NCBI GenBank assembly: GCA_902765395.1
Contig: CACWZP010000001.1
Coordinates: 157,583-221,582 of the forward strand
Origin: an uncultured Eubacteriales bacterium
GTDB taxonomy: Bacteria; Bacillota; Clostridia; Christensenellales; Aristaeellaceae
Length of the DNA stretch: 64,000 nucleotides
Direction: 5' to 3'
The translations under genes were made by a program, and so were the position numbers. This document shows positions 342-41,983 of this stretch, one piece after another (position 1 is the first letter of the stretch; every line of letters begins with the position of its first letter). Below the pieces are notes generated by a model. It searched no databases. It was not told the origin of the DNA and saw only the letters and a program-made list of their open reading frames with translations.

Positions 342-2177
342 TTACAGATTGTTCGTGTAGATATGTTCGTTTTGCTCGTCCGGGGACTCGAAGTAGTCGA
401 TCTGTCCGGTCAGCAGACCCGCCAGCTCGTCGCCGTCCAGCAGGGTGTAATCCTCGGTGCGGCTGGCATCGAAGGAAACCTCGCGCTCCACGCCGTCCAG
501 CCCGTCGTGGTTGTAGGGCTTCCCGCCGCCGTCCGGCGTATATTTGATGTTCGGGTGCTTTGTCAGGTCGAACTTCTCGTCCACGATGGGACGTTCGCCG
601 CGAATAAAGAGAAGCGCGTAGCGGTTGTCCAGCATGCGCACTTCATCCGAGGTTAGCAGCTCGCGGCCCGTCTGCTGATAGTTGTCGGAGTAGCTGCCGT
701 TCTTGCCCTTGTTCAGGCCGTGGGTGGTGGTGTCGATGGTGCCCTTGCCCATCAGCTTGGAGACGTATTCATGGGTGGACTGTTCGTTGCCTCCGAGGTA
801 GACGAAGGTATCACAGTTGCCCACCAGGGATTCCCAGCTGTCCTTGAACAGCGCCTTCAGCTGGGCCATGTTCTGGATGATGATGGACACGGAGATTTCT
901 CGGCTGCGCATGGTGGCCAGCAGCTTTTCAAAATCGTCCGGCAGGGCGACGTTGGCGAACTCGTCCATCAGGAAATGCACATGGACCGGCAGCCTGCCGC
1001 CGTACTTCCTGTCGGCCAGGTTGTAGAGCTGCTGGAAGGTCTGGGTGTAGAACATTCCGATCAGGTAGTTGAAGGAGGTGTCGTTGTCGGGGATGCAGCA
1101 ATACACCACGGTCTTCCGTTCGCCGATGGAGGGTATGTCCATCTCGTCGAAGTCCGTCATGCGCGTCACCTGGGACAGGTTGAAGGTCGCCAGACGCACG
1201 CCCACGGACACGAGGATGGACTTCGCCGTTTTGCCCGCCGCCATTTTGAATATGCGGTATTGCTTCACGGCGATGTGGTCGGGGTCGCGCATTTCCAGAT
1301 TCTGGAAGAGGATGTCGAGGTCGCTCATGTAATTCTTTTCATCCTCCTTGACATCCGCGGCTTGCAGCATCTCCATGACCGTCGCAAAGTTGCGCTCGTT
1401 CTTGGGCGCGCAGTGAACGAGAAACAGGATCAGGGCTTCCAACAGCGCCGTCTCCGACTTCTCCCAGAAGGGGTCGTTGTTGCTGGCGTTCTTCGGCGTG
1501 GTGTTCTTGATGAGGTTCGTCACCAGCCGAAGCACGTCGTTGTCCGATTCGATATACTCCAGGGGATTGTAGCACCAGGATTGGTTCATGTTGATGAGGT
1601 CGATCACCTTCACGTCGTAGCCGAGGCGCTTCATCAGCTCGCCGGTGTCCCGGCAGATCTCGCCCTTCGGGTCGGTGATGATGAAGGAGGTGTTGCCCTG
1701 GAGCACGTTGGGCTTGGCGTAGAAGCGGGTCTTGCCAGCGCCGGAGCCGCCGACGATCAGCACGTTCAGGTTGCGGCGGTGGATGTGGCTATCCAGGCCG
1801 AGGCGCACGCTGTTGGTCAGCAGGATGTTTTCGGCCGGGTCGCTGCCGGCGTATTTCTTGTTGACCTGCTTTGCATCTCCCCAGCGAGCCGAGCCGTATT
1901 CCTCCAGCGGCTTCACCCTGCGCCTTGAAGCTGCCCAAGCCAGGACGGACACGGCGTAGGTGCCGCACAGCAGAAACAGCATCTTGGGGGTCTTGTCCAC
2001 CCAGCGGACGCTGAACGGCTGTGCCATCGCCGCGTTGAGGCCTTCCAGCAGTCCGGACAGGCCCACGTCCTCCGTCACAAGCGGCGCGACCAGCAGTGCC
2101 AGCCACGCCACCAGCAGGAGGCCCGCGACCATCAGGATGACGGTGGCCTTGTCGAGGGTTCCCACTTGTTTGGGCAT
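342..2177 (-). CDS. virD4: VirD4/TraG-family type IV coupling protein
   Basis: A protein of about 611 residues with two N-terminal membrane segments (about 12-35 and 65-85). A Walker A motif (GGSGAGKT, near residue 141) and a Walker B-type motif (HFLMDEFANV, near residue 405) follow. This is the architecture of TraG/VirD4 hexameric ATPases, which bring the relaxase-DNA complex to the conjugation channel. The first possible start is a TTG, but the adjacent ATG overlaps the upstream stop codon (TGATG) and is preferred. The acidic, Tyr/Glu-rich C-terminus is typical of the Gram-positive group. Its partner PcfB is encoded just upstream, matching the pcfB-pcfC order of pCF10-like systems. Confidence 0.93.
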   Translation of the reverse strand: MPKQVGTLDKATVILMVAGLLLVAWLALLVAPLVTEDVGLSGLLEGLNAAMAQPFSVRWVDKTPKMLFLLCGTYAVSVLAWAASRRRVKPLEEYGSARWGDAKQVNKKYAGSDPAENILLTNSVRLGLDSHIHRRNLNVLIVGGSGAGKTRFYAKPNVLQGNTSFIITDPKGEICRDTGELMKRLGYDVKVIDLINMNQSWCYNPLEYIESDNDVLRLVTNLIKNTTPKNASNNDPFWEKSETALLEALILFLVHCAPKNERNFATVMEMLQAADVKEDEKNYMSDLDILFQNLEMRDPDHIAVKQYRIFKMAAGKTAKSILVSVGVRLATFNLSQVTRMTDFDEMDIPSIGERKTVVYCCIPDNDTSFNYLIGMFYTQTFQQLYNLADRKYGGRLPVHVHFLMDEFANVALPDDFEKLLATMRSREISVSIIIQNMAQLKALFKDSWESLVGNCDTFVYLGGNEQSTHEYVSKLMGKGTIDTTTHGLNKGKNGSYSDNYQQTGRELLTSDEVRMLDNRYALLFIRGERPIVDEKFDLTKHPNIKYTPDGGGKPYNHDGLDGVEREVSFDASRTEDYTLLDGDELAGLLTGQIDYFESPDEQNEHIYTNNL

Positions 2178-2377
2178 CAACGGGCGTCACCCCGACTGAC
2201 GCTTCGCCGCTTCTCCTTTCTGGTCGGCGCCTCAATGGTCTTGATCAGCAGTTCGTCAATGATGTCCGTGGTGTAGCCCTCGGAGAGCTTGGCGGTTCGG
2301 TAGTCGTTCAGAGCGTTGATGACGACGCCCTGTTCGTGTTCGTCTATTTCGAGGATCAATTTGTCATCCCGAAACAA
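2177..2377 (-). CDS. Small DUF5720-like ICE protein
   Basis: A 66-residue protein starting at a TTG, six bases downstream of a strong GAGGTGATG ribosome site that overlaps the stop of the pcfB-like gene. It reads FRDDKLILEIDEHEQG... and ends in a basic segment. Longer open frames exist upstream, but they only shadow the PcfB gene. It looks like the small DUF5720 proteins that sit between PcfB and VirD4 in clostridial ICEs; the family assignment is from memory of that pattern. Function is unknown. Its stop overlaps the VirD4 start, so translation is probably coupled. Confidence 0.62.
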   Translation of the reverse strand: MFRDDKLILEIDEHEQGVVINALNDYRTAKLSEGYTTDIIDELLIKTIEAPTRKEKRRSVSRGDAR

Positions 2378-26552: not shown

Positions 26553-27475
26553 GTCTGCTCAGCTCCTTCCGCGGGTGCGTTGGCCCTTGATACCCAGACA
26601 GATGTGACCAGCACCGTGCCCAGCACGACGGCCAGCGTGATCTTGCCGGGGATGGTGTTCATCAGCATATCGTACCAATCCGCGATCATAAAGGCCATCA
26701 GGGGGATGCTGCCCAGCACCAGCAGCACGGTGATGATGTAATCGCTGATGTGCTTGCGCAGGGTGGTATCCACTTCCATCTGGATCTGCCGCATCTCGGA
26801 AAGACGCTCCACAATGCCATTGAGGGTCCGGTTCAGGTTCACGTCGTCCTGGCATTGGATGAGGGCGTTGCACCACTCCTGCCAGTACCAGTTGTCCACG
26901 CTTTCGCGCATTCGCTGGATGGCGTGGACGATATTGCCGTCCACATATTGTACATCGGCCATGAACCGCTTGAAGATGTCGCTGACCGGCGCGGGCAGCA
27001 TGGGCAGCACGCGCTCCACGGCGATGACGAGATTGCCCGTGGCGATGTAGCTGTTGGTGACGCTGCTCATGGCCATCTCCAGCTTCTCGTTTACCATGCG
27101 GGTATAGTCCGCCGTTCTCAGTCGGATGATGGTCAGCGGGGTCATGGCCAGGCCGATGCCCAGCACCGCGCTCACCAGCAGGTTGTCGATGACGATGCCA
27201 AACATCACGCCGGCCATCGCCAGCAGCACCGCCATGTTCCGGTAGGTGACAAATTGCTCGCCCATGCCGGAGGCATCCAGCATCACGGAGGCTTCCTCCA
27301 TCATGCGCTGGGCGAAGGAGGGCTTCTTGCCGGTGATGTGGCGGATGCGCTTTTTCCGGCTGACGCTGCGCTGGAAGGGCTTTTTCAGCTCGTCCGTCAC
27401 GTCGCGGGGGCGAACGTCCGCCATAATAAACAGCCCCGTCGTTACGAAGAGGGCGCATAGCAGATAGGCGATCAT
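26549..27475 (-). CDS. tadB: TadB-like type II secretion F-family membrane protein
   Basis: A 308-residue inner-membrane platform protein with helices at about 3-17, 75-115 and 245-295, and a T2SSF domain around 120-240. It overlaps both the TadA and TadC genes by 4 bp. Together they would transmit ATPase motion to pilin assembly. Confidence 0.85.
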   Translation of the reverse strand: MIAYLLCALFVTTGLFIMADVRPRDVTDELKKPFQRSVSRKKRIRHITGKKPSFAQRMMEEASVMLDASGMGEQFVTYRNMAVLLAMAGVMFGIVIDNLLVSAVLGIGLAMTPLTIIRLRTADYTRMVNEKLEMAMSSVTNSYIATGNLVIAVERVLPMLPAPVSDIFKRFMADVQYVDGNIVHAIQRMRESVDNWYWQEWCNALIQCQDDVNLNRTLNGIVERLSEMRQIQMEVDTTLRKHISDYIITVLLVLGSIPLMAFMIADWYDMLMNTIPGKITLAVVLGTVLVTSVWVSRANAPAEGAEQT

Positions 27476-28860
27476 GTCGAAGTACCTCCCTTCGATCTGC
27501 TCTTGGTGGTCGGGGTCGGCTCACGGCTGAAATAGGAGACCTGCTTCTCGTCGGCTCCGTTGCTCAGCATCAGCTCGGCAATGCGGGGCGATATGGCCCC
27601 GACGCGCCTCCAGCTGTCGCCGCTCCTGGTCTTTTCGTATTGGAAAAGTGTCCGGGTCTTGGCGACCCCGTCGCAGGCGGAGGTGGCCTCCACGACCTCC
27701 GTGATGCACCGCTTGTTGTCGGACAGCTGCTTGCAGAAGATGGTGATGGGGAACGCCTCCACGATCAGGTCCATCAGGAGAGTGGGCGTCAATGTATTGC
27801 CCGGATTCATCTGGCACATAGTCAGTATGCGGGAATAGGTCTGCTTGGCGCTGTTGGCGTGGAGGGTGCTGGTGACGGTATGCCCGGTGCGGGCGGCCTC
27901 CTGCGCGTCGTAGGCTTCGCCGCCGCGCATCTCCGCCATCGTGATGATGTCGGGCCGCATTCGGAGCGTGGAGCGTACCAAGCTCTGCATATTCACGTCA
28001 AGGCGGGGGTCGTCGCTGGGGCGGGTGCAGAGCGTTACCACGCTCTTGAGCTTCTGATTGTTCTCGTCCAGCGGATTGACGATCAGGATCTCGCGGGTCT
28101 CCTCAATGGTGACGATGCGCAGCTTCTCGTCCAGGTTGTTCAGCAGGTAGCTGGTCAGCGTGGTCTTGCCGGAGCCGGTCTTGCCCGCGACGCTGACAGA
28201 TACGCCGTGATTCAGGCACAGACTGATGAAGTCAAGCAGCTCGTCATTGGCGGTTCCCCAGCGGATCAGCTGGTCGCGGGTGACGTTGAACAGGTGCTGC
28301 TTGCGGATAGTGAAGGCGATTCCATCCTTCTCGTCGATGACCGGCGGGAAGAAGGCGGTGATGCGCACGCCGGTGGTGATGTAGGCATCCACGATGGGAT
28401 GGGCCGTGTCGATGGTCTGCCCAGAAATGCGCACCAGGCGGCGGGCAATGTCGCGGCCCTGCTCCGGGGTGGCAAAGCTCTCATGGTACTTGTGGCGGCC
28501 CTTCTCGTCGATGATCTCCACGTCGTTATAGGCGTTGACCAGGATTTCCTCCACGCTGGGATCGGCCAGCGGTTCCTCCAGAATGGAATAACCCGCCATG
28601 TCCCGATAGAGGCGGTTCGTTAGCTCCCGGATACTCATGCCCGCCACATAGACCTTGTTCGAGGTCAGGAACTGCTCAGTCAGGTAGCGCACAGTATCGC
28701 GGGCTTGTTCCTGAAGCACGGTCTCCGCGAGGGTCTGGGCATGATGCTCGCTCAGGTAGGCTTGGGTCTTTGCCAGCGCGCTCTCATAGGTGTTGTCCTC
28801 CGCGGGTGCGGCTTCGCTGGCGCTGTTGTACAGTATCTTGGAAAGGGTCGCTTCGCTCAT
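27472..28860 (-). CDS. tadA: TadA/CpaF pilus assembly ATPase
   Basis: A 462-residue secretion ATPase. An N-terminal helical region is followed by the core: Walker A VAGKTGSGKTTL (about 225), a Walker B-type region (PDIITMAEMRGGEAYDAQEAA, split: IITMAEMRGGEA about 312) and a His box (GHTVTSTLHANS, about 333). It powers Tad pilus extension and possibly retraction at the inner face of the membrane. It overlaps the TadZ stop by 4 bp. Confidence 0.93.
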   Translation of the reverse strand: MSEATLSKILYNSASEAAPAEDNTYESALAKTQAYLSEHHAQTLAETVLQEQARDTVRYLTEQFLTSNKVYVAGMSIRELTNRLYRDMAGYSILEEPLADPSVEEILVNAYNDVEIIDEKGRHKYHESFATPEQGRDIARRLVRISGQTIDTAHPIVDAYITTGVRITAFFPPVIDEKDGIAFTIRKQHLFNVTRDQLIRWGTANDELLDFISLCLNHGVSVSVAGKTGSGKTTLTSYLLNNLDEKLRIVTIEETREILIVNPLDENNQKLKSVVTLCTRPSDDPRLDVNMQSLVRSTLRMRPDIITMAEMRGGEAYDAQEAARTGHTVTSTLHANSAKQTYSRILTMCQMNPGNTLTPTLLMDLIVEAFPITIFCKQLSDNKRCITEVVEATSACDGVAKTRTLFQYEKTRSGDSWRRVGAISPRIAELMLSNGADEKQVSYFSREPTPTTKSRSKGGTST

Positions 28861-29624
28861 TCAGTAGCCTCCAGTGTCATGGTATCCAGATTGTCGCGGC
28901 GCGCCTCCACCGCGTCGTAGAGTCGATGCAGGTTCTTCGTCCACGCGATGCCCTCGCGCCAGATCTCCTCCGTCGCCAAGCGGCACTCGTCGTGCAGCCG
29001 TCCGAGATCGCGGCTGTACTTGAACTGGGCGGCAAAGCGGATTCCAAGCTGGCCCTCAACCTCCGAGATCAGATGGAAGGGCTGTACCATCGTGGCGGCG
29101 GGGACGGTTTTCTCCAGCACGCCGGCGTTTTGCAGCATGGGCAGGATGGCGCTGTACCAATACACCGCGCCGACGCTCGGAACGATGGGCAGCACGATGC
29201 AGTCCGCCTCACGGAGCATGACCGGCAGGAAGGGGTCGGTGCGCTGGACGCTGCAATCGAGGATCACGGTGCCCAGCAGCTCCTCGCTTTGCAGCAGGAA
29301 CTCCCTGGCCCGGTCGATGCCCTCGTAGCCGATCTCATAGTCGATGAAGGTGTCCCTGTCCGTCAGTCCCGCGAGGAACATCCCGCTGCACTGGGGATGC
29401 TGGTGGAAATAGGGGCGAATCTCGTTGGTGCCCAGGCGGTTCAGATGGCGGCCCAGGCTGTGCTCCCGCTCCAGCCGTGTGCCCGCCAGCTGGATTGGCA
29501 GGGTCGGACTGCAAAGGCTGGTGTCGATGACGCCCACGGTGCCGTGGTTCGCATAGATGCTGCCCAGCCCGGTGGCCAATGTGGTCTTGCCGGTGCCGCC
29601 ACAGCCCCAAATCGCAATAATCAT
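28857..29624 (-). CDS. TadZ/CpaE-like MinD-family ATPase
   Basis: A 255-residue ParA/MinD-fold protein. The P-loop GCGGTGKTTL is at residues 7-16; the usual first Lys of the deviant Walker A (KGGxGKT) is replaced by Cys. GVIDTSLCSPTL follows at about 35. TadZ proteins place the pilus machine at the pole, and the operon position supports that role. The altered P-loop suggests weak or changed ATP use. Confidence 0.78.
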   Translation of the reverse strand: MIIAIWGCGGTGKTTLATGLGSIYANHGTVGVIDTSLCSPTLPIQLAGTRLEREHSLGRHLNRLGTNEIRPYFHQHPQCSGMFLAGLTDRDTFIDYEIGYEGIDRAREFLLQSEELLGTVILDCSVQRTDPFLPVMLREADCIVLPIVPSVGAVYWYSAILPMLQNAGVLEKTVPAATMVQPFHLISEVEGQLGIRFAAQFKYSRDLGRLHDECRLATEEIWREGIAWTKNLHRLYDAVEARRDNLDTMTLEATE

Positions 29625-30748
29625 TCGCCCACCCCCGGATCGTTGAAGTCGATTTCAGAGGGATAGACGGGTTCGGAGGGTTCCTGCGTCGCGGCGGGCT
29701 CCGCCGTCACAGCGACAGTCTCGGTTTCAGCCGGTTCGACGGAAGCCTCCGGCGCGGTCGTCGCGGCTGGAGCCTCAGTCGCCTGAGCAGTCGTCGTCTT
29801 CTGTGGCACTTCGGGAGTCGGCTGTGCCGATTCGGAAGTCGCGGCAGGCGAGGCCGTGGGTTCGGCAGTGGGCGTGGGCTCCGGGATCGGCTCCTCCACC
29901 AGCACGCGCTCCTCGCGGGGAATGAACACGTCCGCCGCGTCACCGCGGGCGAGAAAGGCGATGTGGATGTCTCCGTTCTGCTCGATCTCCGCCAGCTTCA
30001 AAGCCTGTTCTTCCGTGACATAGAAGGTGATGGTGGCGGGCAGGCGGTTGGGCACGTCCGGGTCCTTTGCTGCGTTTACCAGCGCGTCGGTGCCGTCCGA
30101 GGACGTGACCTTACAGACCTCCAGGTAGCGCAGCTCCTCCGGGATGTAGGTTTCCGATTCCTTTTGGATGCTGGAGATCAGCGTCTGGTTGATGCCCGAA
30201 TTGATGTCGCCGTCGCTGTCCTCGCCTTCGCCGTCCTCCGATTCCGGGGTCGTGGTGATGGTGGATTGCTCCGTTGCCACCAACAGGCCCAGCTGCTGGT
30301 TGAACTGAGTGATCTTGCTCGTCACCATGACCGCCACCACATCGCCGGGCAGCAGCGTGCCGGACACGCCCGCGGTCAGGGTGGGAATGGTCAGGGAGAC
30401 CAGCTGCTTGCCTTTGGCCGCGCCAGCGGCGACGGGATCGACGAGGGTATCACGCACCTTCGTGGCGGTCAGGATGTCCCCGGCGAACAGCTGTGTCACG
30501 GCGTATTTGCCTCGATAGGTGTCCACTGACGAGGACGCGCCGCTGGGTACGTTTGCCGCAGGGATGGTGGTCGTCTCCAGGTTCTCAGCCGTGAGCTGCT
30601 CCCCGGCCTTGACGTTCTGCGTCAGGCGCACCACCTGGGTCATGGAGATCTCGTTGCGCTGGCTCTTGGGCAGCAGGATGAAGCCCGCCGTCACGCCGAT
30701 GGCGATGCACAGGATGCCGATGATAAACTTGTTCCGAATGAGTTTCAA
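29621..30748 (-). CDS. CpaB/RcpC-like SAF-domain pilus protein
   Basis: A 375-residue protein with one N-terminal membrane helix (FIIGILCIAIGVTAGFILL), a SAF domain starting at residue 39 (VVRLTQNVKAGEQLTAENLE), an RcpC-like region to about 285, and a Thr/Pro/Ala/Glu-rich tail of about 85 residues ending the protein. In Gram-negatives CpaB works with the secretin. Here, with no outer membrane, the Pro-rich tail may span the cell wall; that is inferred. Confidence 0.82.
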   Translation of the reverse strand: MKLIRNKFIIGILCIAIGVTAGFILLPKSQRNEISMTQVVRLTQNVKAGEQLTAENLETTTIPAANVPSGASSSVDTYRGKYAVTQLFAGDILTATKVRDTLVDPVAAGAAKGKQLVSLTIPTLTAGVSGTLLPGDVVAVMVTSKITQFNQQLGLLVATEQSTITTTPESEDGEGEDSDGDINSGINQTLISSIQKESETYIPEELRYLEVCKVTSSDGTDALVNAAKDPDVPNRLPATITFYVTEEQALKLAEIEQNGDIHIAFLARGDAADVFIPREERVLVEEPIPEPTPTAEPTASPAATSESAQPTPEVPQKTTTAQATEAPAATTAPEASVEPAETETVAVTAEPAATQEPSEPVYPSEIDFNDPGVGE

Positions 30749-30821
30749 AGCGTATTCCTCCTCGCTAGTGTTGTGATGTCAGGAAGGAATACGCGAGAAC
30801 GCTTATTCCTTCACGGCATGG

Positions 30822-31328
30822 TCAATGGTGTTGTGCCCTCGCTTCACGCAGACAGGGCGATTTGAAGATGGTCAGGGGCTCGCTGTCCCGAACGGTCAGG
30901 CGGCTCCAGCAGCGGTTATACTGGGTGCGCGGGTCAGTGATCTCACAATCGTAGGCGGCCTCGAAGCGGGTCTCCAGGTTCCCGATCAGTACGCGGAACT
31001 GCCGCACCGCGTCGCGGGTGCGCTGGATGGTCAAGTCCTTCTGGATATTGCTCAACAGACCGAGCATGGATCGGTGCATCTGCAATTCCGTGTGATAGGG
31101 CCGTGCCCACGGTCCGATGACCGACCAGAAGCCGTCCTCGGAAAGCTCCATCATGGTCAGGGGCACGTCATGGTACTGGCAGGTGTCGAGGTTCCCGATG
31201 TACAGCGGGTAGAGAAGCGGCACAATGCCCAGCTCGTCCACGCCGCAGAAGCGGATCAGCGAGCGGCTCATGTGCCGGTAGCCTTCGATGGGAATCAAAA
31301 AGGGTTTGCGCTTGGGGTATTCAGTCAT
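30822..31328 (-). CDS. Hypothetical protein upstream of the Tad operon
   Basis: A 168-residue soluble protein of unknown family. Conserved-looking features are an N-terminal RKPFLIPIEGYRHMSRSLIRF and several Trp/Tyr-rich loops (DGFWSVIGPWARPYH). It lies 33 bp after the ParB-like gene and 73 bp before cpaB. That gap holds a GAAGGAATA/TATTCCTTC stem (about 30783-30812). Function unknown. Confidence 0.6.
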   Translation of the reverse strand: MTEYPKRKPFLIPIEGYRHMSRSLIRFCGVDELGIVPLLYPLYIGNLDTCQYHDVPLTMMELSEDGFWSVIGPWARPYHTELQMHRSMLGLLSNIQKDLTIQRTRDAVRQFRVLIGNLETRFEAAYDCEITDPRTQYNRCWSRLTVRDSEPLTIFKSPCLREARAQHH

Positions 31329-31361
31329 GGCATCAGTCCTTCCGATGGTTCTTGATTGTCA

Positions 31362-32276
31362 TTACATTTCCATCCGTTTTCTGTGGTGGTACTGCTCGAT
31401 CAGCTCCAGCAGCTTCTCCTTCACGTCCTCAATGGTCAGGTTGGGGAAGTGTTCGTCGCGGATGGAGGCGACGAAATCATCTTTTGTTGTGTTCCGTCTT
31501 TCAGGCTGCTCCTGGGACATGACCTCGTCAAAGGCATCCTGGGTCAAAGCCCCTTGGTCAAAGAGAGAGCGTAGCTCCCTGATCTGCGTCACGGTCGGCC
31601 ACAGGTTGTTTTGCTCATGGAAGTCGGTGATCCAGCATTGGACCTCCGTATCGAGGTAACTGATCTGGATGGCAACGCCGAGCTTCAGTTTCCCTCCATC
31701 CACCATTTCAAGCAGAGGCTGGTTCAAATGTGTCAGCCGGATCATGCGCATCACCTTGCTGGCGCTCTCGCCAAAGTGTTCCGCAATCCTGTCCTTCGAC
31801 CTTCCCGGCTTGGCGTTGTCGCCATCAAGCTGGACGCCCTGATACACCAGCGCGTCGCGCATCATGCGATACGCCTTTGCCTTTTCGCTGGGGAACAGCT
31901 TTTGCCGGTTTTTGAGGTTTGTCTCGATCATGGCAATGGTAGCGGCACTATCATCCATATCCCTGCGAATCTCCACTGGCATTGTGGGTTTGCCGGCAAG
32001 CCGGGACGCTTCCTTCCGCCGGTGTCCGGCGATGATCTCATAGCCGCCCTGTCTCCTGGGACGGACGATAGCGGGAACCAGCACGCCATTGTTGCGGATG
32101 CTCATCACCAGCCGATCCATGTCCGCATCCATCACCACCCGAAAGGGATGGCCGGGGAAGGGGTATAGCTCGTCCAGCGAGGCCATGATGATCTCTTTGT
32201 CCGGCTTTGGCGGGGTCAGTTGCTCGTGTTCGGAGAACACTTCATCCACGGCGGCGACATCCATCTGCTCATTCAT
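31362..32276 (-). CDS. ParB/Spo0J-family DNA-binding protein
   Basis: A 304-residue protein with the ParB box pattern (LYPFPGHPF about 34; IAGHRRKEASRLAG about 78-91) and a helix-turn-helix around 155-185 (RSKDRIAEHFGESASKVMRMIRL). Lone ParB-like proteins are usual in Bacillota ICEs and may control copy maintenance or gene expression; no ParA partner is visible here. It starts after GGAGGACG and overlaps the upstream gene by 8 bp. Confidence 0.88.
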   Translation of the reverse strand: MNEQMDVAAVDEVFSEHEQLTPPKPDKEIIMASLDELYPFPGHPFRVVMDADMDRLVMSIRNNGVLVPAIVRPRRQGGYEIIAGHRRKEASRLAGKPTMPVEIRRDMDDSAATIAMIETNLKNRQKLFPSEKAKAYRMMRDALVYQGVQLDGDNAKPGRSKDRIAEHFGESASKVMRMIRLTHLNQPLLEMVDGGKLKLGVAIQISYLDTEVQCWITDFHEQNNLWPTVTQIRELRSLFDQGALTQDAFDEVMSQEQPERRNTTKDDFVASIRDEHFPNLTIEDVKEKLLELIEQYHHRKRMEM

Positions 32277-32676
32277 CGTGATCGTCCTCCAGTCGGTTCA
32301 GTTCTTCGATGTACCCGTCCATGTCCGAAAGTATATCGCGCATCAGCAGCGTCAGCGTTTCAGGGTTCTGGCCATACTCCAGAAACTGCCGCGGCACGGG
32401 CTTCTCCACGCCGATGAAGCAAAGTACGACGTACAGGAACATGGAACGGTATTTCCGAAGCTCGCAGAGCATCTTCAGGTAATCCCGGACGGTGTAGGGG
32501 TCTATCATCCGTGCCGAGAGCGCGCTCATCAGATCGGCGGTAATGGTGCCGCTATACGCCTTGCACGCCTCCGAGCGATTGGGATGCAGCCGCGCCATAT
32601 CCTCAAGCCCGGTCTGCGTGCAATAGGCCGCTGCCCCGATGCTCGTCAGCACGTCAAAAACATGGTTCATTTTCAT
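32269..32676 (-). CDS. Hypothetical helical protein
   Basis: A 135-residue, mostly helical protein of unknown family. It follows a good ribosome site (AAGGAGG) and overlaps the ParB-like gene by 8 bp, so the two are likely coupled. Residues 75-95 (RSMFLYVVLCFIGVEKPVP) are hydrophobic but probably a buried helix rather than a membrane span. Confidence 0.6.
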   Translation of the reverse strand: MKMNHVFDVLTSIGAAAYCTQTGLEDMARLHPNRSEACKAYSGTITADLMSALSARMIDPYTVRDYLKMLCELRKYRSMFLYVVLCFIGVEKPVPRQFLEYGQNPETLTLLMRDILSDMDGYIEELNRLEDDHDE

Positions 32677-32697
32677 AGCCTCCTTCTGCGATGGGTA

Positions 32698-32724
32698 AAA
32701 GAAAAAGCCAGCCTGTCGCTGACT
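32698..32724 (-). terminator. Terminator after the rep-like gene
   Basis: A 7-bp stem with one G-T pair (AGCCAGC 32706-32712, GCTGACT 32718-32724) followed on the minus strand by TTTTTCTTTT. It sits 32 bp after the stop of the replication initiator-like gene. Confidence 0.65.
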
Positions 32725-32755
32725 TCATTCTTGCGGTGTTTGGTGGGTTCCCGGC

Positions 32756-33658
32756 TCAAAACGGGAGTTCGTCGTCGTCCCTGGCGCGTCTGGTCGCGCC
32801 TCCGTAGAGGTCGTGGTTGACCAGCGCAGCGTAGTAGCTGTCGATGGTACTCGGCGCGTTGAACAGCGCCGCCAGGAGATACTTCTTGATGTTGCGCACC
32901 TGGGTTGTATTCCTGTCGAGGCAGTTCAGCACATATTCAATGTGCAGACTGTTCAGCCGCAGCAGCTTGTCCTTGACGGCGCGGGCGGGATATTCGTCCC
33001 CGGCAATGCTCATGGTCTCCCGCCGGGAGCAGAGTGTCTCCGTGATGAGATCGACGATTTCATCCAGGCGGCCTGCCGGGAACCGTTCGTCCTGTACCAG
33101 CACGTCATAGCTCAGGTTCCGCTTCACCAGCCGGCGCACGCTCTCCATGTCGAAGGGCGGGTCGGGATTGATTGGATCAGGATTTGATGCCTGCGTGCTT
33201 GATATTTTTATTATTTCTTTTTGGGGAATTGATTGCGGGGGATTCTCCTGTGCAGGTGCGGCCTGTTCAGGTTCTTCCTGTACAGGAGATGCCTGTGCAG
33301 GTTTCGCCTGTACTGGTTTCACCTGTACAGGATTTTCCCGTCCAGGTGGATTCGTGCCGGATTGCTGGGGCTGTTCGTATATCACGTACTCCATGCCCCG
33401 AAGCCGTCCGTGGTCGTCCCGCTGGCGGGAGCGTATGATGTAGCCGGCGCGCTCCAGCTCCTTGACCGCTTCACCGATTGCGTCCACGCCCTCTTTGCTG
33501 ATGACGGCGAGGCCCTTCAAGGTGTAGTCCCATTCTTCCGGCAGGGACAGCATCACCGAAAGCAAGCCTTTTGAACGGAGCGAAAGCCGCCTGTCCTTCA
33601 GATGGTGATTCGCCATCACGGTGTAGTTCTTTGTCTTTTCTACGCGAAATACCGCCAT
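32756..33658 (-). CDS. Replication initiator-like HTH protein (RepA_N/DUF6017 type)
   Basis: A 300-residue protein. The N-terminal 100 residues form a winged-helix initiator-like domain (MAVFRVEKTKNYTVMANHHL, SLRSKGLLSVMLSLPEEWDY, then GIGEAVKELERAGYI-like helices). A Pro/Gln-rich five-residue repeat linker (PVQxx, about 105-140) follows, then a C-terminal DUF6017-like domain. This three-part plan is that of RepA_N plasmid initiators, whose origin lies within the gene. The linker DNA here is a run of palindromic iterons. The start follows a purine-rich site; the longer frame upstream has none. Confidence 0.75.
   Translation of the reverse strand: MAVFRVEKTKNYTVMANHHLKDRRLSLRSKGLLSVMLSLPEEWDYTLKGLAVISKEGVDAIGEAVKELERAGYIIRSRQRDDHGRLRGMEYVIYEQPQQSGTNPPGRENPVQVKPVQAKPAQASPVQEEPEQAAPAQENPPQSIPQKEIIKISSTQASNPDPINPDPPFDMESVRRLVKRNLSYDVLVQDERFPAGRLDEIVDLITETLCSRRETMSIAGDEYPARAVKDKLLRLNSLHIEYVLNCLDRNTTQVRNIKKYLLAALFNAPSTIDSYYAALVNHDLYGGATRRARDDDELPF
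33199..33346. repeat. Seven 15-bp iterons beside an AT-rich tract: candidate origin
   Basis: The 10-bp palindrome CCTGTACAGG or a one- to two-base variant starts at 33247, 33262, 33277, 33292, 33307, 33322 and 33337, an exact 15-bp period. Directly beside them, 33199-33232 is rich in A and T within GC-rich surroundings. Iterons plus an AT-rich unwinding tract inside a rep gene is the known origin plan of RepA_N plasmids. The function here is inferred. Confidence 0.75.
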
Positions 33659-33782
33659 GCTTTTTCCCGCCTTTCTTGGCATATCCGGGGTAGTGGGCCC
33701 AGCAGATAGCCAGAGTGCAAATGAAGCTGATGAGGACAAATATGCCGATCAGCAGAGACAGGCCGATAAAAAAATCCTTCAT
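33471..33782 (-). CDS. Small membrane protein overlapping rep out of frame
   Basis: The first 30 residues form a membrane helix (FFIGLSLLIGIFVLISFICTLAICW). A basic segment (KKGGKKHGG) follows, and then the frame runs 188 bp into the rep-like gene in another frame, giving an Arg-rich tail. It starts at ATG after AAGGGTG, or at a GTG that overlaps the upstream stop. The N-terminus looks real; the overlapping tail may be an accident or a lost stop codon. Confidence 0.45.
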   Translation of the reverse strand: MKDFFIGLSLLIGIFVLISFICTLAICWAHYPGYAKKGGKKHGGISRRKDKELHRDGESPSEGQAAFAPFKRLAFGDAVPAGRMGLHLEGPRRHQQRGRGRNR

Positions 33783-33787
33783 GCTCG

Positions 33788-34234
33788 TCACACCCTTTCA
33801 AGTCGGGATTCAGCCGGTTCCTCGTTCTCGTTGCCAGGTTGTTCAGACTCGTCCGATTCCTGGAGATACTCGTTCATGTCCTGGTAGGCGTTATAGACAC
33901 GGCTCAGAACAAGATCGGTAGCGGTGAGCGGGGGAAAGGCACCTTCGGGCAGCTCCACTTCGCTCACGATGTAGCAGAGCACCAGCAGAAGATAGGCGGC
34001 ATCAATATTTCCAATCGCCCACAACTCACTGATGATGTTGACGATTTGGTGAATGTCCAAGCCCATAACCTTCAGCGCGTCCATGACCTGATAGGTGGTT
34101 TCGCCGCTGATGAAGTTGACTTCCACTTCTGCCGCTTGCCCGTCACGGCTATCTTCTTCGGTGCCAGTGAATTGGGACTGGTCTCTGCAAAGGATGGACA
34201 GGATCAGTTCCTTATCAATTCCATTCAGGCTCAT
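33788..34234 (-). CDS. Acidic hypothetical protein, first gene of the ICE leftward operon
   Basis: A 148-residue acidic protein of unknown family with a hydrophobic middle (IDAAYLLLVLCYIVSEVELP) and a Glu/Ser/Asp-rich end. It starts after GAAGGAGGGAG. It is the first gene downstream of an intrinsic terminator (34,260-34,284), so its expression may depend on reading through that hairpin. Confidence 0.55.
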   Translation of the reverse strand: MSLNGIDKELILSILCRDQSQFTGTEEDSRDGQAAEVEVNFISGETTYQVMDALKVMGLDIHQIVNIISELWAIGNIDAAYLLLVLCYIVSEVELPEGAFPPLTATDLVLSRVYNAYQDMNEYLQESDESEQPGNENEEPAESRLERV

Positions 34235-34259
34235 AGTCTCCCTCCTTCAAAATGGCAAC

Positions 34260-34284
34260 AAAAAAGACCAGCTGGCTGCTGGTC
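34260..34284 (-). terminator. Terminator or attenuator before the ICE operon
   Basis: A perfect 7-bp stem (GACCAGC 34266-34272, GCTGGTC 34278-34284) followed on the minus strand by six T residues. It lies about 25 bp upstream of the first leftward gene. It either ends transcription coming from the integrase side or attenuates the operon. Confidence 0.7.
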
Positions 34285-34549
34285 AGATTTGCTGGGTTGT
34301 GGTATGCGATTATCCATATGCAGGATTGAGCTTTGCTTCTTGCAAGGCACTTTCTCTCAAAAACGCGGCCAAATCATGCCTTGTGCCCATCGTACCCTTA
34401 TAAGCGTTCCGTACCCTTGAAACGTACCCTTATAAGGACAACACGATGCGATTCAATGCGGCCTTATTTGAACAGGCTGCACGGAAAACACGAACTTGGG
34501 ATTGTATAAATGGCACAAAACGATACTATCCGAACGCCCTCCCTTAAAG
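34285..34549. other. Right end of the ICE, non-coding
   Basis: No convincing gene is seen between the terminator and the tRNA-type repeat. It holds three GTACCCTT-led 13-mers (starting at 34392, 34411 and 34424; the first and third are identical, GTACCCTTATAAG), which may be binding sites for an integrase or excision factor at the element end. Promoter elements for the leftward operon may also lie here, but none stands out. Confidence 0.5.
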
Positions 34550-34648
34550 TTGGTAAGGATGAGGTCGCCGGTTCGAATCCGGCCATCAGCTCCATTAAAC
34601 CAGTCAGAAATGACTGGTTTTCTTATGCTTTTGGGCGATTTTTGCAGG
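34550..34648 (+). repeat. attL-type repeat: tRNA-Thr 3' fragment plus terminator (copy 1)
   Basis: Identical over 99 bp to 56,280-56,378. It starts at the first base of the anticodon loop (TTGGTAA, anticodon GGT) and runs through the T-arm (GGTTCGAATCC) and the acceptor 3' half to CCA at 34594. It then includes a GAAA-loop terminator hairpin (34,597-34,621) and 27 more bases. The 5' half of the tRNA is absent. This is the junction of the left ICE with the right element. Confidence 0.93.
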
Positions 34649-34749
34649 CAAAAACCGGGGTCAAAATCACATTCCAAATCACATTCCGGACGTTATTTGG
34701 AATTTTCCTTCCTATTATGTGCGTCAAAAAAGTGCAATCACATTTTTCA
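34649..34749. repeat. Short direct repeats next to the integrase
   Basis: AATCACATTCC occurs twice in tandem (34665-34675, 34677-34687) and related CAATCACATTT and CATCACATC copies lie just before the integrase stop. Integrases of this class often bind short arm-type repeats near the att core; that role is inferred. Confidence 0.4.
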
Positions 34750-35979
34750 TCACATCGCTGCGCCCCCTGGCAGCCCATAGAGCATTGAAACCGTCTTGGC
34801 GGCGTTAAGTTTCTGCGGTCTGCCTTTCACGTAGTGCTTCAGCGTCATCGCGGATGTGGTGTGGCCGGCTGCGTCCTTGGCGACGTTGATGTCCTTCGTG
34901 GTGTCGTAAATGTCCGTCAACACCGTCGTGCGGAACCGGCGCGGCAGGATGGGCTCGTCGAAGCTGATGTCCTTCTGGATGCGCCGGCACATCCGCCGCA
35001 CCTGTGTGTAGCTGAGCGGCTCCTTGCCGCCGAAGATGAAATCGCTCGCCCTGCCCTCCGGTAAGCAGTCGCGGATGCCCTCGGCCAGGTCGATGTCGCG
35101 ACGGCTGGCTTCCGTCTTCGTCGCCTTGACCTCCGGCTGGTTGCGCGTCGGGTGCGTCACCGAGCGCCGCACATGGATCAGGTTCAGCTTTCGGTCAATG
35201 TCCTCGTGCTTCAAGCCGAGAGCCTCCTCCAGCCTCAGCGGATGCAGGGCCATCAGCGCGATGAACGCGCGATCGTCCGCCCGCTTCACCTGATTGAGCC
35301 TGGAGACGATGGTCTGCATCTGCTCCACCGTGTAGGGTTCGGTGGGCTTTGGCGCGCGTCCCGTGATTCTGATGCTCTTCGACGCCAACGGGTTTTTGAC
35401 GATGATTTCATCCTCAATCGCCTGCTGGAAGATCATGTTGAGCACCATCTTCGCCTTGAGCTTGGTCTCCTTTGCGCCCTGGATGCCGTTGAACATCGCC
35501 TGAACATCCGCCGGCTTGATGTCCTCTACGTCCATCTCCCCGAAGGCGGGGATCAGGTAGCGCTTCAACTGGCGCTCGTAGGTCGTTGCCGTTGCGGTTT
35601 CGACGTTCGGGCGTGAAAAGATGTCGAACCACGTCTGTGCGTACTGTGCAAAGTTGTGTTTATCGTGTGGAGCCTGCGCGGGCGCTGCCTGCGGCGCCGC
35701 CATCTGAAACAGCTTCTCCGCGTATTCCTGCTCGCTGTTCGCGGTGATCCACACCTGGCGGCCGTCGATGGTGACGCGTCGCTTGATCTTGGGATTTGCC
35801 ATGTCGCTGTCCTCCTCAGACAGCCTGACTTCCAGTTTCCCTGTGGAGTTGTCAAGGTTCGCCGGGGTTGTCCCCATCAACGATTGTATCATATCCGCCT
35901 GGGTTTTGCAAACCTTCGTCAGCGCGTCGATCTGTTCTTCGAGCGTGTGCACATGGCTCTGAATGTCTTGCTGTGTCAT
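34750..35979 (-). CDS. int: Tyrosine-family site-specific integrase
   Basis: About 410 residues. A coiled-coil-like N-terminus (LEEQIDALTKVCKTQADMI) is followed by an arm-binding region, a SAM-like core-binding domain (about 110-205) and the catalytic domain. Visible catalytic residues are Arg in HPLRLEEALGL, Lys in ATKTEASRRD, Arg in RRFRTTVL, His in AAGHTTSAM and the Tyr nucleophile in LKHYVKG. The first His of the usual HxxR box is Arg. The start is uncertain: an internal ATG at 35802 has a far better ribosome site (GAGGAGG). It lies 101 bp from the tRNA-type repeat and should catalyse integration and excision of the 21.7-kb element. Confidence 0.92.
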   Translation of the reverse strand: MTQQDIQSHVHTLEEQIDALTKVCKTQADMIQSLMGTTPANLDNSTGKLEVRLSEEDSDMANPKIKRRVTIDGRQVWITANSEQEYAEKLFQMAAPQAAPAQAPHDKHNFAQYAQTWFDIFSRPNVETATATTYERQLKRYLIPAFGEMDVEDIKPADVQAMFNGIQGAKETKLKAKMVLNMIFQQAIEDEIIVKNPLASKSIRITGRAPKPTEPYTVEQMQTIVSRLNQVKRADDRAFIALMALHPLRLEEALGLKHEDIDRKLNLIHVRRSVTHPTRNQPEVKATKTEASRRDIDLAEGIRDCLPEGRASDFIFGGKEPLSYTQVRRMCRRIQKDISFDEPILPRRFRTTVLTDIYDTTKDINVAKDAAGHTTSAMTLKHYVKGRPQKLNAAKTVSMLYGLPGGAAM

Positions 35980-36006
35980 TGTGTTTTTTATCATCTCCTC
36001 GTCAAT

Positions 36007-36032
36007 CAAAACAACCGCCCGTTTCAGGGCGG
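36007..36032 (-). terminator. Terminator between primase and integrase genes
   Basis: A 6-bp GC stem (CCGCCC 36015-36020, GGGCGG 36027-36032) followed on the minus strand by TTGTTTTGATT. It begins 35 bp after the primase stop and would isolate the integrase gene. Confidence 0.55.
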
Positions 36033-36066
36033 CTGGTCGTAAAGTGTATTCTGGATTTGTTGGCCG

Positions 36067-37380
36067 TCAAAGCTGTGTGTTGATGAGCACATGGACGCCG
36101 TGATAGCCTCTGGCCTTCTTCCCGTATCCGGCGTCCAGATTCTTGTCGTAAGTGATGTTCAGCCTGCCCTCATTGTTCCGCAGGATGGTGCTGAACGTGC
36201 GCTCTGTGAAGGGCTTTTCCACGTTGTCCTCGCACCAGCGCCTGTAGGTCTGGAACAGCTCCTTTGTGGTGGCATGGGTGACGGGATCGAAGCGGATGTA
36301 GCCCGTGGAGCCCAGGAAGTCCAGCACATTGTTGTCGATGTGCCGGATCTCCGCCATGTTCCGCTGGGTGCGCTCGCTGATCGTGAATCGAAACTGGTTG
36401 CGCATCAGCCGGTGCAGACCCTCCAGGCACCACAGCGCGATTCCCTCCGCCTCCCGGATCAGGCGGTCGCCCAGGAAGGGATCGTCCTTCCGATCGGGCG
36501 GCTTTTCGCGCACCTTCAAAATCAGCTGCCGCCGATAGAATCCGTCGGACTTGTCATAGAGTGCCGCCAGAGAGCCGTTGCCAAAGCCGATCAGCCGGGC
36601 ATAGAGAAACCCCTGGTAGCTCTGTTTGCCTTTCCTCTCCAAATCGATCTTGTCTTCCATTGTGATGATGGCTTTCAGGATGTTCGTGTCCGGCAAGGCG
36701 CTCATGTTCATGTCGTCGTCCAGCATCAAGAGCTTACCCTCCAGGTCGGCGCGGGCGAAGCGATTTGTCGCCAGCTTAACGATGCTGCTGGTGTTCATGT
36801 TGTCGCCCAGGATCGCCCGCAGCACGCGGCCCACCCGCGATTTGCCTTCGCCGCCGTTCCCGATGAGCAGCAGCATCTGCTGTGCCTTGTTGGAAGGGAT
36901 CAGCAGATAGCCCATGAATTCCTGAAAGGCCGGGATGTCCTCCTCGTAGAACAGCTCTTTCAGGAAGGCCAGCCATCGCTTCGGCTCCGGTGCATTCGGA
37001 TTGTATTTCACGGCCAGCCGATTCAGGCAGAACTGCATTTCAGAGCTGAACGCGCCGTCCAGATAATAGGTGCCGTTGGCGAAGTGCACCCGATCCGCTT
37101 GAATCGGCAGGGCTTCCGAATGGGCGCAGTATTTCAGCGCGTTTGTCAGGTTCAGCACGGTCTTCTTGACATCGCCCTTCATGAGATAAGGCTCGACCTC
37201 TGCAAAGATCATCTGCTGCACCTCTTCATCGGGGATGTGGCCGTTTACGTCGTAGACCCGGTCGTGGACGCATTTCAGGGGATGCGCCTCCATAAATGCC
37301 CTGGCAAAGCCGATGGCGTTGATCTCCTTGCCGTTGTACCAAATCGGGTCAAGCGGCTGCTTTTGTTGGTTCTGGTTCAT
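36067..37380 (-). CDS. Phage/plasmid-type SF3 helicase (P4-like primase C-terminal type)
   Basis: A 437-residue protein. A D5_N-like region (about 60-165) precedes an SF3 helicase: Walker A GNGGEGKSRVG (about 190), Walker B KLLMLDDDMN (about 228) and sensor region RLIGFGNGSL (about 275). A winged-helix domain ends it. No N-terminal polymerase domain is seen, so it is probably the helicase/loader for element replication. The start follows TGGAGGAA; the longer frame has no ribosome site. Confidence 0.85.
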   Translation of the reverse strand: MNQNQQKQPLDPIWYNGKEINAIGFARAFMEAHPLKCVHDRVYDVNGHIPDEEVQQMIFAEVEPYLMKGDVKKTVLNLTNALKYCAHSEALPIQADRVHFANGTYYLDGAFSSEMQFCLNRLAVKYNPNAPEPKRWLAFLKELFYEEDIPAFQEFMGYLLIPSNKAQQMLLLIGNGGEGKSRVGRVLRAILGDNMNTSSIVKLATNRFARADLEGKLLMLDDDMNMSALPDTNILKAIITMEDKIDLERKGKQSYQGFLYARLIGFGNGSLAALYDKSDGFYRRQLILKVREKPPDRKDDPFLGDRLIREAEGIALWCLEGLHRLMRNQFRFTISERTQRNMAEIRHIDNNVLDFLGSTGYIRFDPVTHATTKELFQTYRRWCEDNVEKPFTERTFSTILRNNEGRLNITYDKNLDAGYGKKARGYHGVHVLINTQL

Positions 37381-37461
37381 ATTTCCTCCATTGATTGAAT
37401 TGCGCCCTCCGGGCGTGCCGGAGGGCGCGGTCGTTTTTGGCATAAAGGCATCTTTCAGTCC

Positions 37462-37497
37462 TTTACATCATACCCTAATTGTGATAGAATATTATCA
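37462..37497 (+). promoter_or_regulatory. Toxin-antitoxin promoter with interrupted palindrome
   Basis: TTTACA (37462-37467), a 17-bp gap and TAGAAT (37485-37490) form a good promoter. The sequence TGATAGAATATTATCA (37482-37497) is an imperfect palindrome across the -10, a likely operator for the antitoxin. Confidence 0.65.
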
Positions 37498-37529
37498 TTA
37501 AAAGCCATATGCGGAAGGGAGCCTCTGCC

Positions 37530-37784
37530 ATGATCATCAAACCGTCATCCGCGCTACGGAACAACTACAGCAGTATATCCAGCATTGCGAAGGAGACCCA
37601 GGAGCCGGTCTATATTACCGTAAACGGAGAGGGCGACGGCGTGTTCATGGACATGGAAGCCTTTGAGCGCCGGGAGCAGCTGCTCAACCTGCGGGCGCGC
37701 ATCCTGCAGGCCGAGGAAGAGCGTTTGCACGGCGCCAGGACCATGAGCGTCGCTGAGGCGCGGGAGGCATTGAGGAAGCTATGA
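37530..37784 (+). CDS. Phd/YefM-family antitoxin
   Basis: An 84-residue protein with the Phd/YefM fold pattern: IIKPSSALRNNYSSISSIA (residues 2-20), then EPVYITVNGEGDGVFMDMEAF (split: PVYITVNGEGDGVFM), and a helical, acidic C-terminus that would wrap the toxin. It starts after AAGGGAG and overlaps the toxin gene by 4 bp (ATGA). It stabilises the element and represses its own promoter by family precedent. Confidence 0.85.
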   Translation: MIIKPSSALRNNYSSISSIAKETQEPVYITVNGEGDGVFMDMEAFERREQLLNLRARILQAEEERLHGARTMSVAEAREALRKL

Positions 37785-41662: not shown

Positions 41663-41983
41663 GTAGTGATACACCTCTTTCTTGTAATTCTGTAATTGTT
41701 TTTTCCCTGTAGTTGAATCCATGTGTTCAGAACACTCTCGGACTTGCCCGTATGCGCACCTTTCTGCACCCCCTTTCACCTCATAATACGGAGAAAATGA
41801 GCGCAAACCGCGATTTTCAGCAGTTCCGCAAATTGCGGTGTTGAGCAGGGCGTGTTCTTACACTTTTGCAATTTAATCCTGCGTTCGATTGCTTTTCACG
41901 GGCACATATGTTAAAATATAAACAAACGTATGTTCGATTATGAATGATAAAATAGAACGCTTCCGAGCGATGAAAGGTGTATC
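41663..41983. promoter_or_regulatory. Divergent control region between parM and the Xre gene
   Basis: A gene-free 321-bp stretch. It holds a perfect 13-bp palindrome CCGCAAATTGCGG (41826-41838). A rightward promoter fits: TTGCTT (41889-41894), a 17-bp gap and TAAAAT (41912-41917). Just past it lies CAAACGTATGTTCG (41923-41936), close to the Gram-positive LexA box CGAACrnryGTTCG. One of the sites may be a parC centromere or an Xre operator. Confidence 0.55.

What the first reader, a model, noticed from the sequence alone, without database searches (positions are those of the whole stretch)
33199..33346. Candidate replication origin inside the ICE rep-like gene
Seven copies of a CCTGTACAGG-type palindrome lie at an exact 15-bp period next to an AT-rich tract, all within the linker of a RepA_N/DUF6017-like initiator gene. 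RepA_N plasmids are known to keep their origin inside the rep coding region, so the ICE may replicate as a plasmid after excision. The repeat also forces a PVQxx peptide repeat, showing DNA-level constraint on the protein.
Basis: partly seen in the sequence, partly recalled or inferred. Interest (0 to 1): 0.75.

Follow-up and report, generated by a model that had tools for sequence, protein, structure and literature searches.

The report
Replication origin inside an initiator gene
A mobile DNA element in a bacterium appears to keep the docking sites for its own copying machinery inside the gene for the protein that reads them, and relatives carry the same DNA sites in a different reading frame, so the DNA rather than the protein seems to be what evolution preserves.

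Summary
The array is real: seven in-register 15-bp units (33242-33346, minus strand), then an AT-rich tract (33198-33235), inside a 300-aa gene (32756-33658). The gene is a winged-helix (HTH_36) + DUF6017 initiator, not RepA_N. [quoted passage not shown] Of the relatives fetched, 145 of 145 distinct HTH+DUF6017 genes carry the array. DNA, not peptide, is conserved: codon 3 of each unit ends in G whatever the amino acid (840 of 866; 421 expected), and 27 distinct relatives keep the word in another reading frame. The 11 RepA_N-type DUF6017 proteins seen lack it. The word follows the DNA-binding domain through natural domain swaps, and an AT-rich stretch follows it. Plasmid pPR9, whose rep region is reported to replicate alone, has a like array. 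Best explanation: iterons plus unwinding element of an in-gene replication origin, read by the protein's own winged helix. No binding or replication was tested. In-gene origins are known, so this is a new variant of a known kind.

The parts
32756..33658 (-). Initiator gene, 300 aa: winged HTH, linker predicted disordered, DUF6017 C-terminal domain
   Evidence: Pfam HTH_36 + DUF6017; PHROG replication initiation proteins; AF2 model wHTH 5-96, pLDDT<50 at 104-171, helical 174-292, in the 303-residue numbering of window:32756-33667; translation
33380..33655 (-). Winged-helix DNA-binding domain (proposed reader of the iterons)
   Evidence: AF2 model; iteron cores follow this domain more than the C-terminus
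33242..33346 (-). Seven 15-bp iterons, family form CC N6 GG AAAAN; here mostly CCTGTACAGG-like
33198..33235 (.). AT-rich tract next to the array, candidate DNA unwinding element
   Evidence: family mean AT 0.77-0.79 in the bins from +15 to +60 after 225 arrays; the window itself 0.62 over its first 60 bp
32798..33151 (-). DUF6017 C-terminal domain (proposed host replisome contact, inferred)
   Evidence: Pfam PF19481, 149.9 bits
31362..32276 (-). ParB-family protein downstream, possibly for maintenance of the excised element (inferred)
   Evidence: Pfam ParB_N, TIGR00180
34550..34594 (+). Candidate right attachment site of the ICE: 45-bp copy of the tRNA-Thr 3' end
   Evidence: intact tRNA-Thr at G000:C1:108260-108335
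342..2180 (-). VirD4-like coupling protein of CD1115 family
   Evidence: NF045973, 536.4 bits, cut-off 250

Best explanation
The 15-bp repeats are iterons, and with the adjoining AT-rich tract they form a replication origin embedded in the linker-coding part of the element's own initiator gene. The initiator's winged helix, encoded just upstream, binds the CC-N6-GG dyads. Several molecules line up along the array, the AT-rich tract opens, and the C-terminal DUF6017 domain brings in the host helicase/primase. This lets the excised circular ICE replicate as a plasmid-like episome, perhaps helped by the neighbouring ParB. Shown by sequence: array, DNA-level constraint, co-inheritance of word and winged helix, AT-rich neighbour, repeats at the candidate ICE ends. 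Inferred: binding, melting, replisome loading, excision and replication of this ICE.
For: 145 of 145 distinct HTH+DUF6017 genes fetched (HMMs built from alignment A1) have at least 3 CCN6GG units at 15 bp, each scoring above 20 codon shuffles. Codon 3 of each unit ends in G in 840 of 866 units versus 421 expected; Gln inside units is CAG in 172 of 174, but the boundary unit has CAA at codon 3 in 127 of 156. 27 distinct genes keep the word in reading frame +1; 8 exact 15-mers are shared between frames. AT-rich stretch after 225 arrays. Core distance (bases 3-8) tracks HTH (partial r 0.58, 0 of 300 permutations) and not the C-terminus (-0.19). Natural swaps: mean distance 0.22 with like HTH and unlike C-terminus (77 pairs), 0.69 with unlike HTH and like C-terminus (29 pairs). 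Dyad covariation between genes. pPR9 rep, whose mini-replicon is reported functional (PMC5703833, section 14 read), has a related winged helix (56.6 bits) and a four-unit chain scoring 13 of 16 against 4 in shuffles. SPP1 oriL is direct repeats plus AT-rich region inside gene 38 (PMC6316719, passages).
Against: No binding, melting or replication data. 20 of 100 HTH genes with another or no recognised C-terminus lack a qualifying array; some are truncated, and six have other 15-bp repeats. 7 of 11 RepA_N-type proteins also show some 15-bp periodicity of another kind, 1-6 matches above the best of 50 shuffles, so the period alone is not special to HTH_36. For tail bases 11-15 the C-terminus keeps a small partial correlation (0.12, 1 of 300 permutations). 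Dyad pairs show no excess within genes; 4/7 and 5/6 are below the within-gene shuffle. Foldseek found no match at E<=0.001 and the model is of modest confidence. The window's following 60 bp are 0.62 AT, less than most bins of the family mean. The array adjoins the HTH, so linkage alone could make the two travel together. Pfam's HTH_36 score is near its cut-off.
Confidence: 0.83

Rival explanations
1. The repeat is only a protein feature: a flexible proline-rich pentapeptide linker that grows and shrinks by slippage.
For: The linker is predicted disordered; the repeat is in frame as five codons; copy number varies.
Against: Wobble base 9 is nearly frozen while coding bases 7-8 vary; like words are kept in another frame, giving NVGK instead of PTLEK; the codon at the Gln position flips at the array edge; 11 RepA_N-type proteins with a related C-terminus lack the word.
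Confidence: 0.03
2. The array is an operator: the protein binds inside its own gene to control transcription, not to start replication.
For: The protein has a DNA-binding domain; the promoter scan was uninformative, so regulation is open.
Against: A mean AT rise follows the array at a fixed place (225 arrays); a like array sits in the rep gene of pPR9, whose mini-replicon is reported functional; neighbours in fetched phage and plasmid records include SSB, DnaC and ATP-binding proteins; in-gene direct repeats of SPP1 are an origin.
Confidence: 0.06
3. The array is the centromere (parS-like site) of the neighbouring ParB.
For: A ParB gene lies downstream; a Brevibacillus plasmid with the array has a ParA neighbour.
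Against: A relative of this ParB occurs within the held flank of 1 of 61 genome loci, while 61 of 61 have the array; cores follow the HTH domain; no ParB is annotated in the shown flanks of array-bearing records.
Confidence: 0.04
4. The array is an origin inherited from a phage-type initiator but silent in this ICE, which replicates only from oriT by its relaxase.
For: R391 replication depends on oriT and TraI (PMC4489591, abstract); the window's units are less alike in the tail than in the core (rank 16 of 147 for that difference).
Against: The array is kept in 145 of 145 distinct relatives fetched, and 47 of 61 genome loci have a VirD4 relative nearby; a silent relic should decay.
Confidence: 0.12

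Closest known systems
pPR9/pUSA03-type staphylococcal plasmid initiator (pfam13730 N-terminus on a pSK41-type C-terminus)
   Same: Related winged helix (56.6 bits with the A1-derived HMM); 15-bp units in the linker, then AAT-rich triplets; pPR9 rep region reported to replicate autonomously
   Different: C-terminus is Bac_RepA_C, not DUF6017, and Pfam HTH_36 is below cut-off there (16.7 bits); a plasmid; in the best four-unit chain one unit matches CCN6GG fully and three have 3 of 4 fixed bases. pUSA03 was not examined
RepA_N plasmid initiators (pSK41) and RepA_N proteins of ICEs (Tn5252, Tn1549, TnGBS families)
   Same: Rep boxes and origin inside the rep linker, dispensable as protein; RepA_N linked to maintenance of excised ICEs (PMC4701971, passages); some share DUF6017
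   Different: N-terminus is PF06970, and no CCN6GG chain in the 11 RepA_N-type DUF6017 proteins seen, though 7 have other weak 15-bp periodicity
Phage SPP1 oriL in gene 38; lambda ori in gene O
   Same: Direct repeats and AT-rich region inside the initiator gene (SPP1); four 19-bp iterons, ori in the middle of lambda O
   Different: Other repeat lengths; SPP1 and lambda sequences were not compared here
Phage winged-helix + DnaB_2 initiators (GBSV1, CNPH82)
   Same: Related winged helix (85.0 and 83.4 bits) and the same kind of 15-bp unit
   Different: DnaB_2 C-terminus and sub-cut-off Pfam HTH_36; CNPH82 reads the units in frame +1

Membership tests
RepA_N plasmid initiator | PF06970 N-terminal domain | tested here: not met
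   No PF06970 at E<=0.1; 6 of 6 RepA_N-type DUF6017 relatives scored 82.9-105.7 bits as positive controls
RepA_N plasmid initiator | Repeats inside the rep coding region | tested here: met
   Repeats present; binding itself untested
HTH_36 (pPR9-type / phage-type) initiator | PF13730 winged helix at N-terminus | tested here: met
   26.9 bits, cut-off 25; pPR9 and the two phage proteins themselves score 16.7-18.8, below cut-off, but 56.6-85.0 with the A1-derived HMM
HTH_36 (pPR9-type / phage-type) initiator | 15-bp array in linker followed by AT-rich tract | tested here: met
HTH_36 (pPR9-type / phage-type) initiator | Rep region supports autonomous replication | not testable with these tools
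   Reported for pPR9
In-gene iteron origin (SPP1 oriL / lambda ori type) | Direct repeats plus AT-rich region within the initiator gene | tested here: met
In-gene iteron origin (SPP1 oriL / lambda ori type) | Initiator binds the repeats and melts the AT-rich tract | not testable with these tools
   Only indirect: co-inheritance of winged helix and iteron word
Tn1549-type ICE (label partly recalled) | CD1115-type VirD4 and relaxase | tested here: met
Tn1549-type ICE (label partly recalled) | VirB4 and VirB6 | tested here: inconclusive
   TraG P-loop ATPase found; TrbL_2 match 26.6 bits, just below its cut-off of 27
Tn1549-type ICE (label partly recalled) | Integrase and flanking attachment repeats | tested here: met
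   tyrosine integrase at C1:108457-109692; 45-bp repeats; no empty site examined

The most novel reading that the evidence does not exclude
HTH_36-type initiators and their in-gene iterons are a single exchangeable specificity cassette shared by ICEs, phages and plasmids. The N6 core is set by the winged-helix recognition helix, so the origin word, and hence which elements are incompatible or can cross-replicate, could be predicted from protein sequence alone; the reading frame of the linker is irrelevant to it. Related winged helices sit on at least three C-termini (DUF6017, DnaB_2, Bac_RepA_C).
Probability: 0.45. Interest if true: 0.75.

Novelty: new variant of a known kind. Interest (0 to 1): 0.64.

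Why it matters
Many ICE-like elements of Firmicutes carry this DUF6017 gene next to conjugation genes, annotated only as a domain of unknown function (for example on the E. faecalis plasmid pMG2200); one search of the paper library for DUF6017 with replication found 0 papers. If the reading is right, these elements are replicating episomes with a locatable origin, which would help explain how they survive between excision and reintegration. Like DNA words kept in two reading frames are an unusually clean case of DNA function overriding protein sequence, and give a ready system for testing how initiator and origin co-evolve.

Tried and rejected
RepA_N assignment: rejected by Pfam. Palindrome as the conserved unit: perfect palindromes are 39 of 896 units and there is no within-gene excess of dyad pairs; kept in weaker form as a dyad between genes. 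Simple one-residue code (Arg/Gly/Cys at 'DAI-x' of the recognition helix): classes differ, but the window has Gly and not the CCGGATACGG word of the Gly class, so the simple code fails for the window itself. RNA element: no Rfam match in 30000-37500. Promoter/terminator scan uninformative. Single-sequence scans of genome and viral contigs found no relative; alignment A1 did. PDB sequence search gave one weak hit, judged irrelevant by its name. Foldseek gave only weak hits.

Sampling limits: counts rest on the best-scoring loci, not all matches. Hit genomes were 62 of 308, 43 of 396, 89 of 391 and 18 of 398, each set including the own genome and overlapping the others; 30, 25, 27 and 26 new loci were taken. 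Relatives are not independent and some are near-identical; distinct sequences were counted, no tree correction was made. Unit bases 1-2 are CC by construction; 1, 2, 9 and 10 are selected; 3-8 and 11-14 are not. Rows dropped: units of the 4 genes with chains under 3; HTH genes with under 90 nt of linker or repeating another's first 150 nt; genes with chains under 4.

Full report
WHAT IS THERE. The gene is on the minus strand, 32756-33658, 300 aa from ATG. Pfam finds HTH_36 (26.9 bits, cut-off 25) and DUF6017 (149.9 bits) and no RepA_N at E<=0.1; PHROGs gives replication initiation proteins. An AlphaFold2 model from 49 sequences shows a winged helix (5-96), a stretch with pLDDT below 50 (104-171) and a helical C-terminus (174-292), numbered on the 303-residue translation of window:32756-33667. 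The low-confidence stretch contains the part encoded by the array. Overall confidence is modest (mean pLDDT 66.6, pTM 0.38), and Foldseek gave no hit at E<=0.001; weak hits include primosomal DnaB (E 0.042) and DnaD (E 0.29).

The array has seven units on the minus strand at exact 15-bp spacing, 33346 down to 33242, followed by CCCCCGCAATCAATTCCCC and an AT-rich run (33198-33235 in all). The word with at most one mismatch occurs 9 times in the window, 6 of them here, against 1.02 expected.

RELATIVES. 62 of 308 genomes of the family, 43 of 396 of the order, 89 of 391 of the class and 18 of 398 of the phylum have a match at E<=0.001 (sets overlap and include the own genome). Loci also came from viral and genome contigs and annotated phage and plasmid records. 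HTH and C-terminal HMMs were built from alignment A1. At the first count, 276 loci gave 186 ORFs with both and 160 distinct linkers; 156 of 160 have a proline every five residues at least three times running, the other four twice. At the second count, 340 loci, 145 of 145 distinct HTH+DUF6017 genes carry at least three CCN6GG units at 15 bp, each scoring above the best of 20 codon shuffles. Of 100 distinct HTH genes with another or no recognised C-terminus, 80 do; the 20 that do not are listed. Some of those are truncated, and six (L055, L184, L194, L291, L332, L340) have other words repeating at 15 bp (lag-15 identity 32-40 of 45).

DNA, NOT PEPTIDE. First, in 896 internal units of 156 genes (466 distinct words) the third base of codon 3 is G in 840 of 866 non-Met units, against 421 expected from the codon usage of the same genes outside the linker. 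Leu is TTG in 345 of 366 (background 15%), Thr ACG 131 of 133 (25%), Ser TCG 50 of 54 (10%), Arg CGG 42 of 42 (29%), Gln CAG 172 of 174 (72%), Pro CCG 55 of 61 (52%), Ala GCG 12 of 12 (27%), Glu GAG 10 of 11 (52%). Coding bases 7 and 8 vary while this wobble base is nearly frozen. The boundary unit has CAA at codon 3 in 127 of 156. Slippage alone does not explain that pattern. Second, 27 distinct genes carry the array in reading frame +1 behind the same kind of winged helix: 22 IMG/VR viral contigs found with the protein of staphylococcal phage CNPH82 (their hosts were not looked up), the named staphylococcal phages CNPH82 and phiSa2wa-st30.2, plasmids of Brevibacillus and Exiguobacterium, and one genome contig (L102, weak); several are near-identical. 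Eight exact 15-mers, of 677 in frame 0 and 63 in frame 1, occur in both; CCAACGTTGGAAAAA is in 13 frame-0 and 4 frame-1 genes and reads PTLEK in one and .NVGK in the other. Bases 11-14, not used in selection, are A-rich in both. Third, 11 RepA_N-type DUF6017 proteins among the 20 C-terminus-only ORFs have no more than one CCN6GG unit in a row; PF06970 was confirmed in the six scanned, the other five are called RepA_N-type from their like N-termini. Against a clean contrast, 7 of the 11 show other 15-bp periodicity, 1-6 matches above the best of 50 shuffles. L027 in that list is a piece of a broken HTH-type gene and holds a 7-unit chain; L110, with another N-terminus, has 2.

WHO READS IT. Across 142 genes, distance between iteron cores (bases 3-8) follows distance between winged helices after removing the C-terminus (partial r 0.58, 0 of 300 permutations as high) and not the reverse (-0.19). 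For tail bases 11-15 the HTH partial is 0.33 and the C-terminus keeps 0.12 (1 of 300). Natural swaps agree: mean core distance is 0.08 when both domains are alike (133 pairs), 0.22 with like winged helix and unlike C-terminus (77 pairs, 58 genes), 0.69 with unlike winged helix and like C-terminus (29 pairs, 20 genes), 0.59 when both differ (5641 pairs), 0.515 over all 10011 pairs. Linkage of winged helix and array in one recombining block explains part of this, but such a block is what a specificity cassette would be. Between genes the core is a dyad: bases 3/8, 4/7 and 5/6 are complementary in 60, 51 and 59% of 78 distinct frame-0 consensus words against 30-32% shuffled (0 of 1000 each), while none of six control pairs exceeds z 0.7; in frame 1 (15 words) only 3/8 stands out (6 of 1000). 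Within single genes there is no such excess, and 4/7 and 5/6 lie below the within-gene shuffle.

UNWINDING ELEMENT. Mean AT is 0.53-0.57 in the 75 bp up to the end of the array, 0.62 in the first 15 bp after it, 0.77-0.79 from +15 to +60, 0.64 at +60 and 0.49-0.53 beyond, over 225 arrays; the window's own first 60 bp are 0.62.

PRECEDENT. In pSK41 the origin and Rep boxes lie in the rep linker, which is dispensable as protein; pPR9 differs from pSK41 in the replication region by a roughly 500-bp block of N-terminus plus origin, has a pfam13730 N-terminus, and its mini-replicon replicates (PMC5703833, section 14 read; the primary paper was not held). I read the pPR9 rep gene: its winged helix scores 56.6 bits with my HMM (16.7, below cut-off, with Pfam's), and its linker has a chain CCGTTTACTGAAAAT, CCGGATACGGATAAC, CCGAATACAGAAAAT, GCGAATACGGAAAAC (13 of 16 fixed bases; shuffles 4), with two more such units upstream, then AAT-rich triplets. 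The section read does not mention these repeats. SPP1 oriL is direct repeats plus an AT-rich unwinding element in gene 38 (PMC6316719, passages); lambda has four 19-bp iterons, with ori in the middle of O (PMC3985674, passages). RepA_N and ParA genes in Tn1549-family ICEs have already been taken to suggest episomal replication (PMC4701971, passages). Searches for DUF6017 with replication (0 papers) and Tn1549 with iteron (1 paper, on MOBQ4 plasmids by its title; listing seen only) turned up no description of this array; other searches were made, of which I saw listings only, apart from the papers cited. Many subscription papers are not held.

THE ELEMENT. A 45-bp repeat of the 3' end of an intact tRNA-Thr (C1:108260-108335) recurs at window 34550-34594 and 56280-56324. 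The first interval, 83.8 kb, holds a tyrosine integrase beside the tRNA, a VirB4-like ATPase and a TrbL/VirB6-like match just below cut-off, a CD1115-type VirD4, a relaxase, ParB and this initiator, about 0.9 kb from the right repeat. If the circle forms by joining the repeats, integrase and initiator lie about 1 kb apart. I read it as an ICE; no empty site was examined and mobility is not known. The ParB is not general to the array: found near 1 of 61 genome loci, VirD4 near 47 of 61, the array in 61 of 61.

VERDICT.

Noticed in passing
window 34595-56324: A candidate second integrated element in tandem at the same tRNA-Thr site: tyrosine integrase 34750-36009, DUF5906/primase-type protein 36067-37443, relaxase 38132-39736 and an actin-like (ALP) protein 40748-41806, bounded by att-like repeats (71 bp identical between 34550 and 56280).
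   Followed up: partly
window 27472-30748 and 19858-23433: The ICE carries a T2SSE-type ATPase, a CpaB/RcpC pilus-assembly protein and a 1191-aa CARDB-repeat protein with a thioester-domain match.
   Followed up: no
window 10873-19185: A 2770-aa protein with MutS-I and SNF2/DEAD/helicase-C matches, plus ArdC-N and Eco57I matches below their cut-offs.
   Followed up: no
window 5892-6734 and 37509-37784: AbiEii-type nucleotidyltransferase toxin inside the ICE and a Phd-family antitoxin in the second element.
   Followed up: no
window 63674-63875 and 57241-57604: Strong tandem repeats: 18-bp unit, 11.2 copies, 95% matches; and 33/99-bp units.
   Followed up: no
L202 1785-2708 and 6001-6900: One contig carries a RepA_N+DUF6017 initiator and an HTH_36-type+DUF6017 initiator about 3.3 kb apart.
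   Followed up: no
L055, L184, L194, L291, L332, L340: Initiators with a related winged helix whose linkers repeat at 15 bp with words other than CCN6GG, possible further iteron specificities.
   Followed up: partly
RepA_N-type genes L049, L051, L094, L097, L100, L112, L202: Weak 15-bp periodicity above codon shuffles although no CCN6GG array; perhaps their own Rep boxes.
   Followed up: no
internal units of the family, e.g. L034, L035, L057: Base 15 of a unit and base 3 of the next covary within genes (57% complementary against 37% in within-gene shuffles); cause unknown.
   Followed up: no
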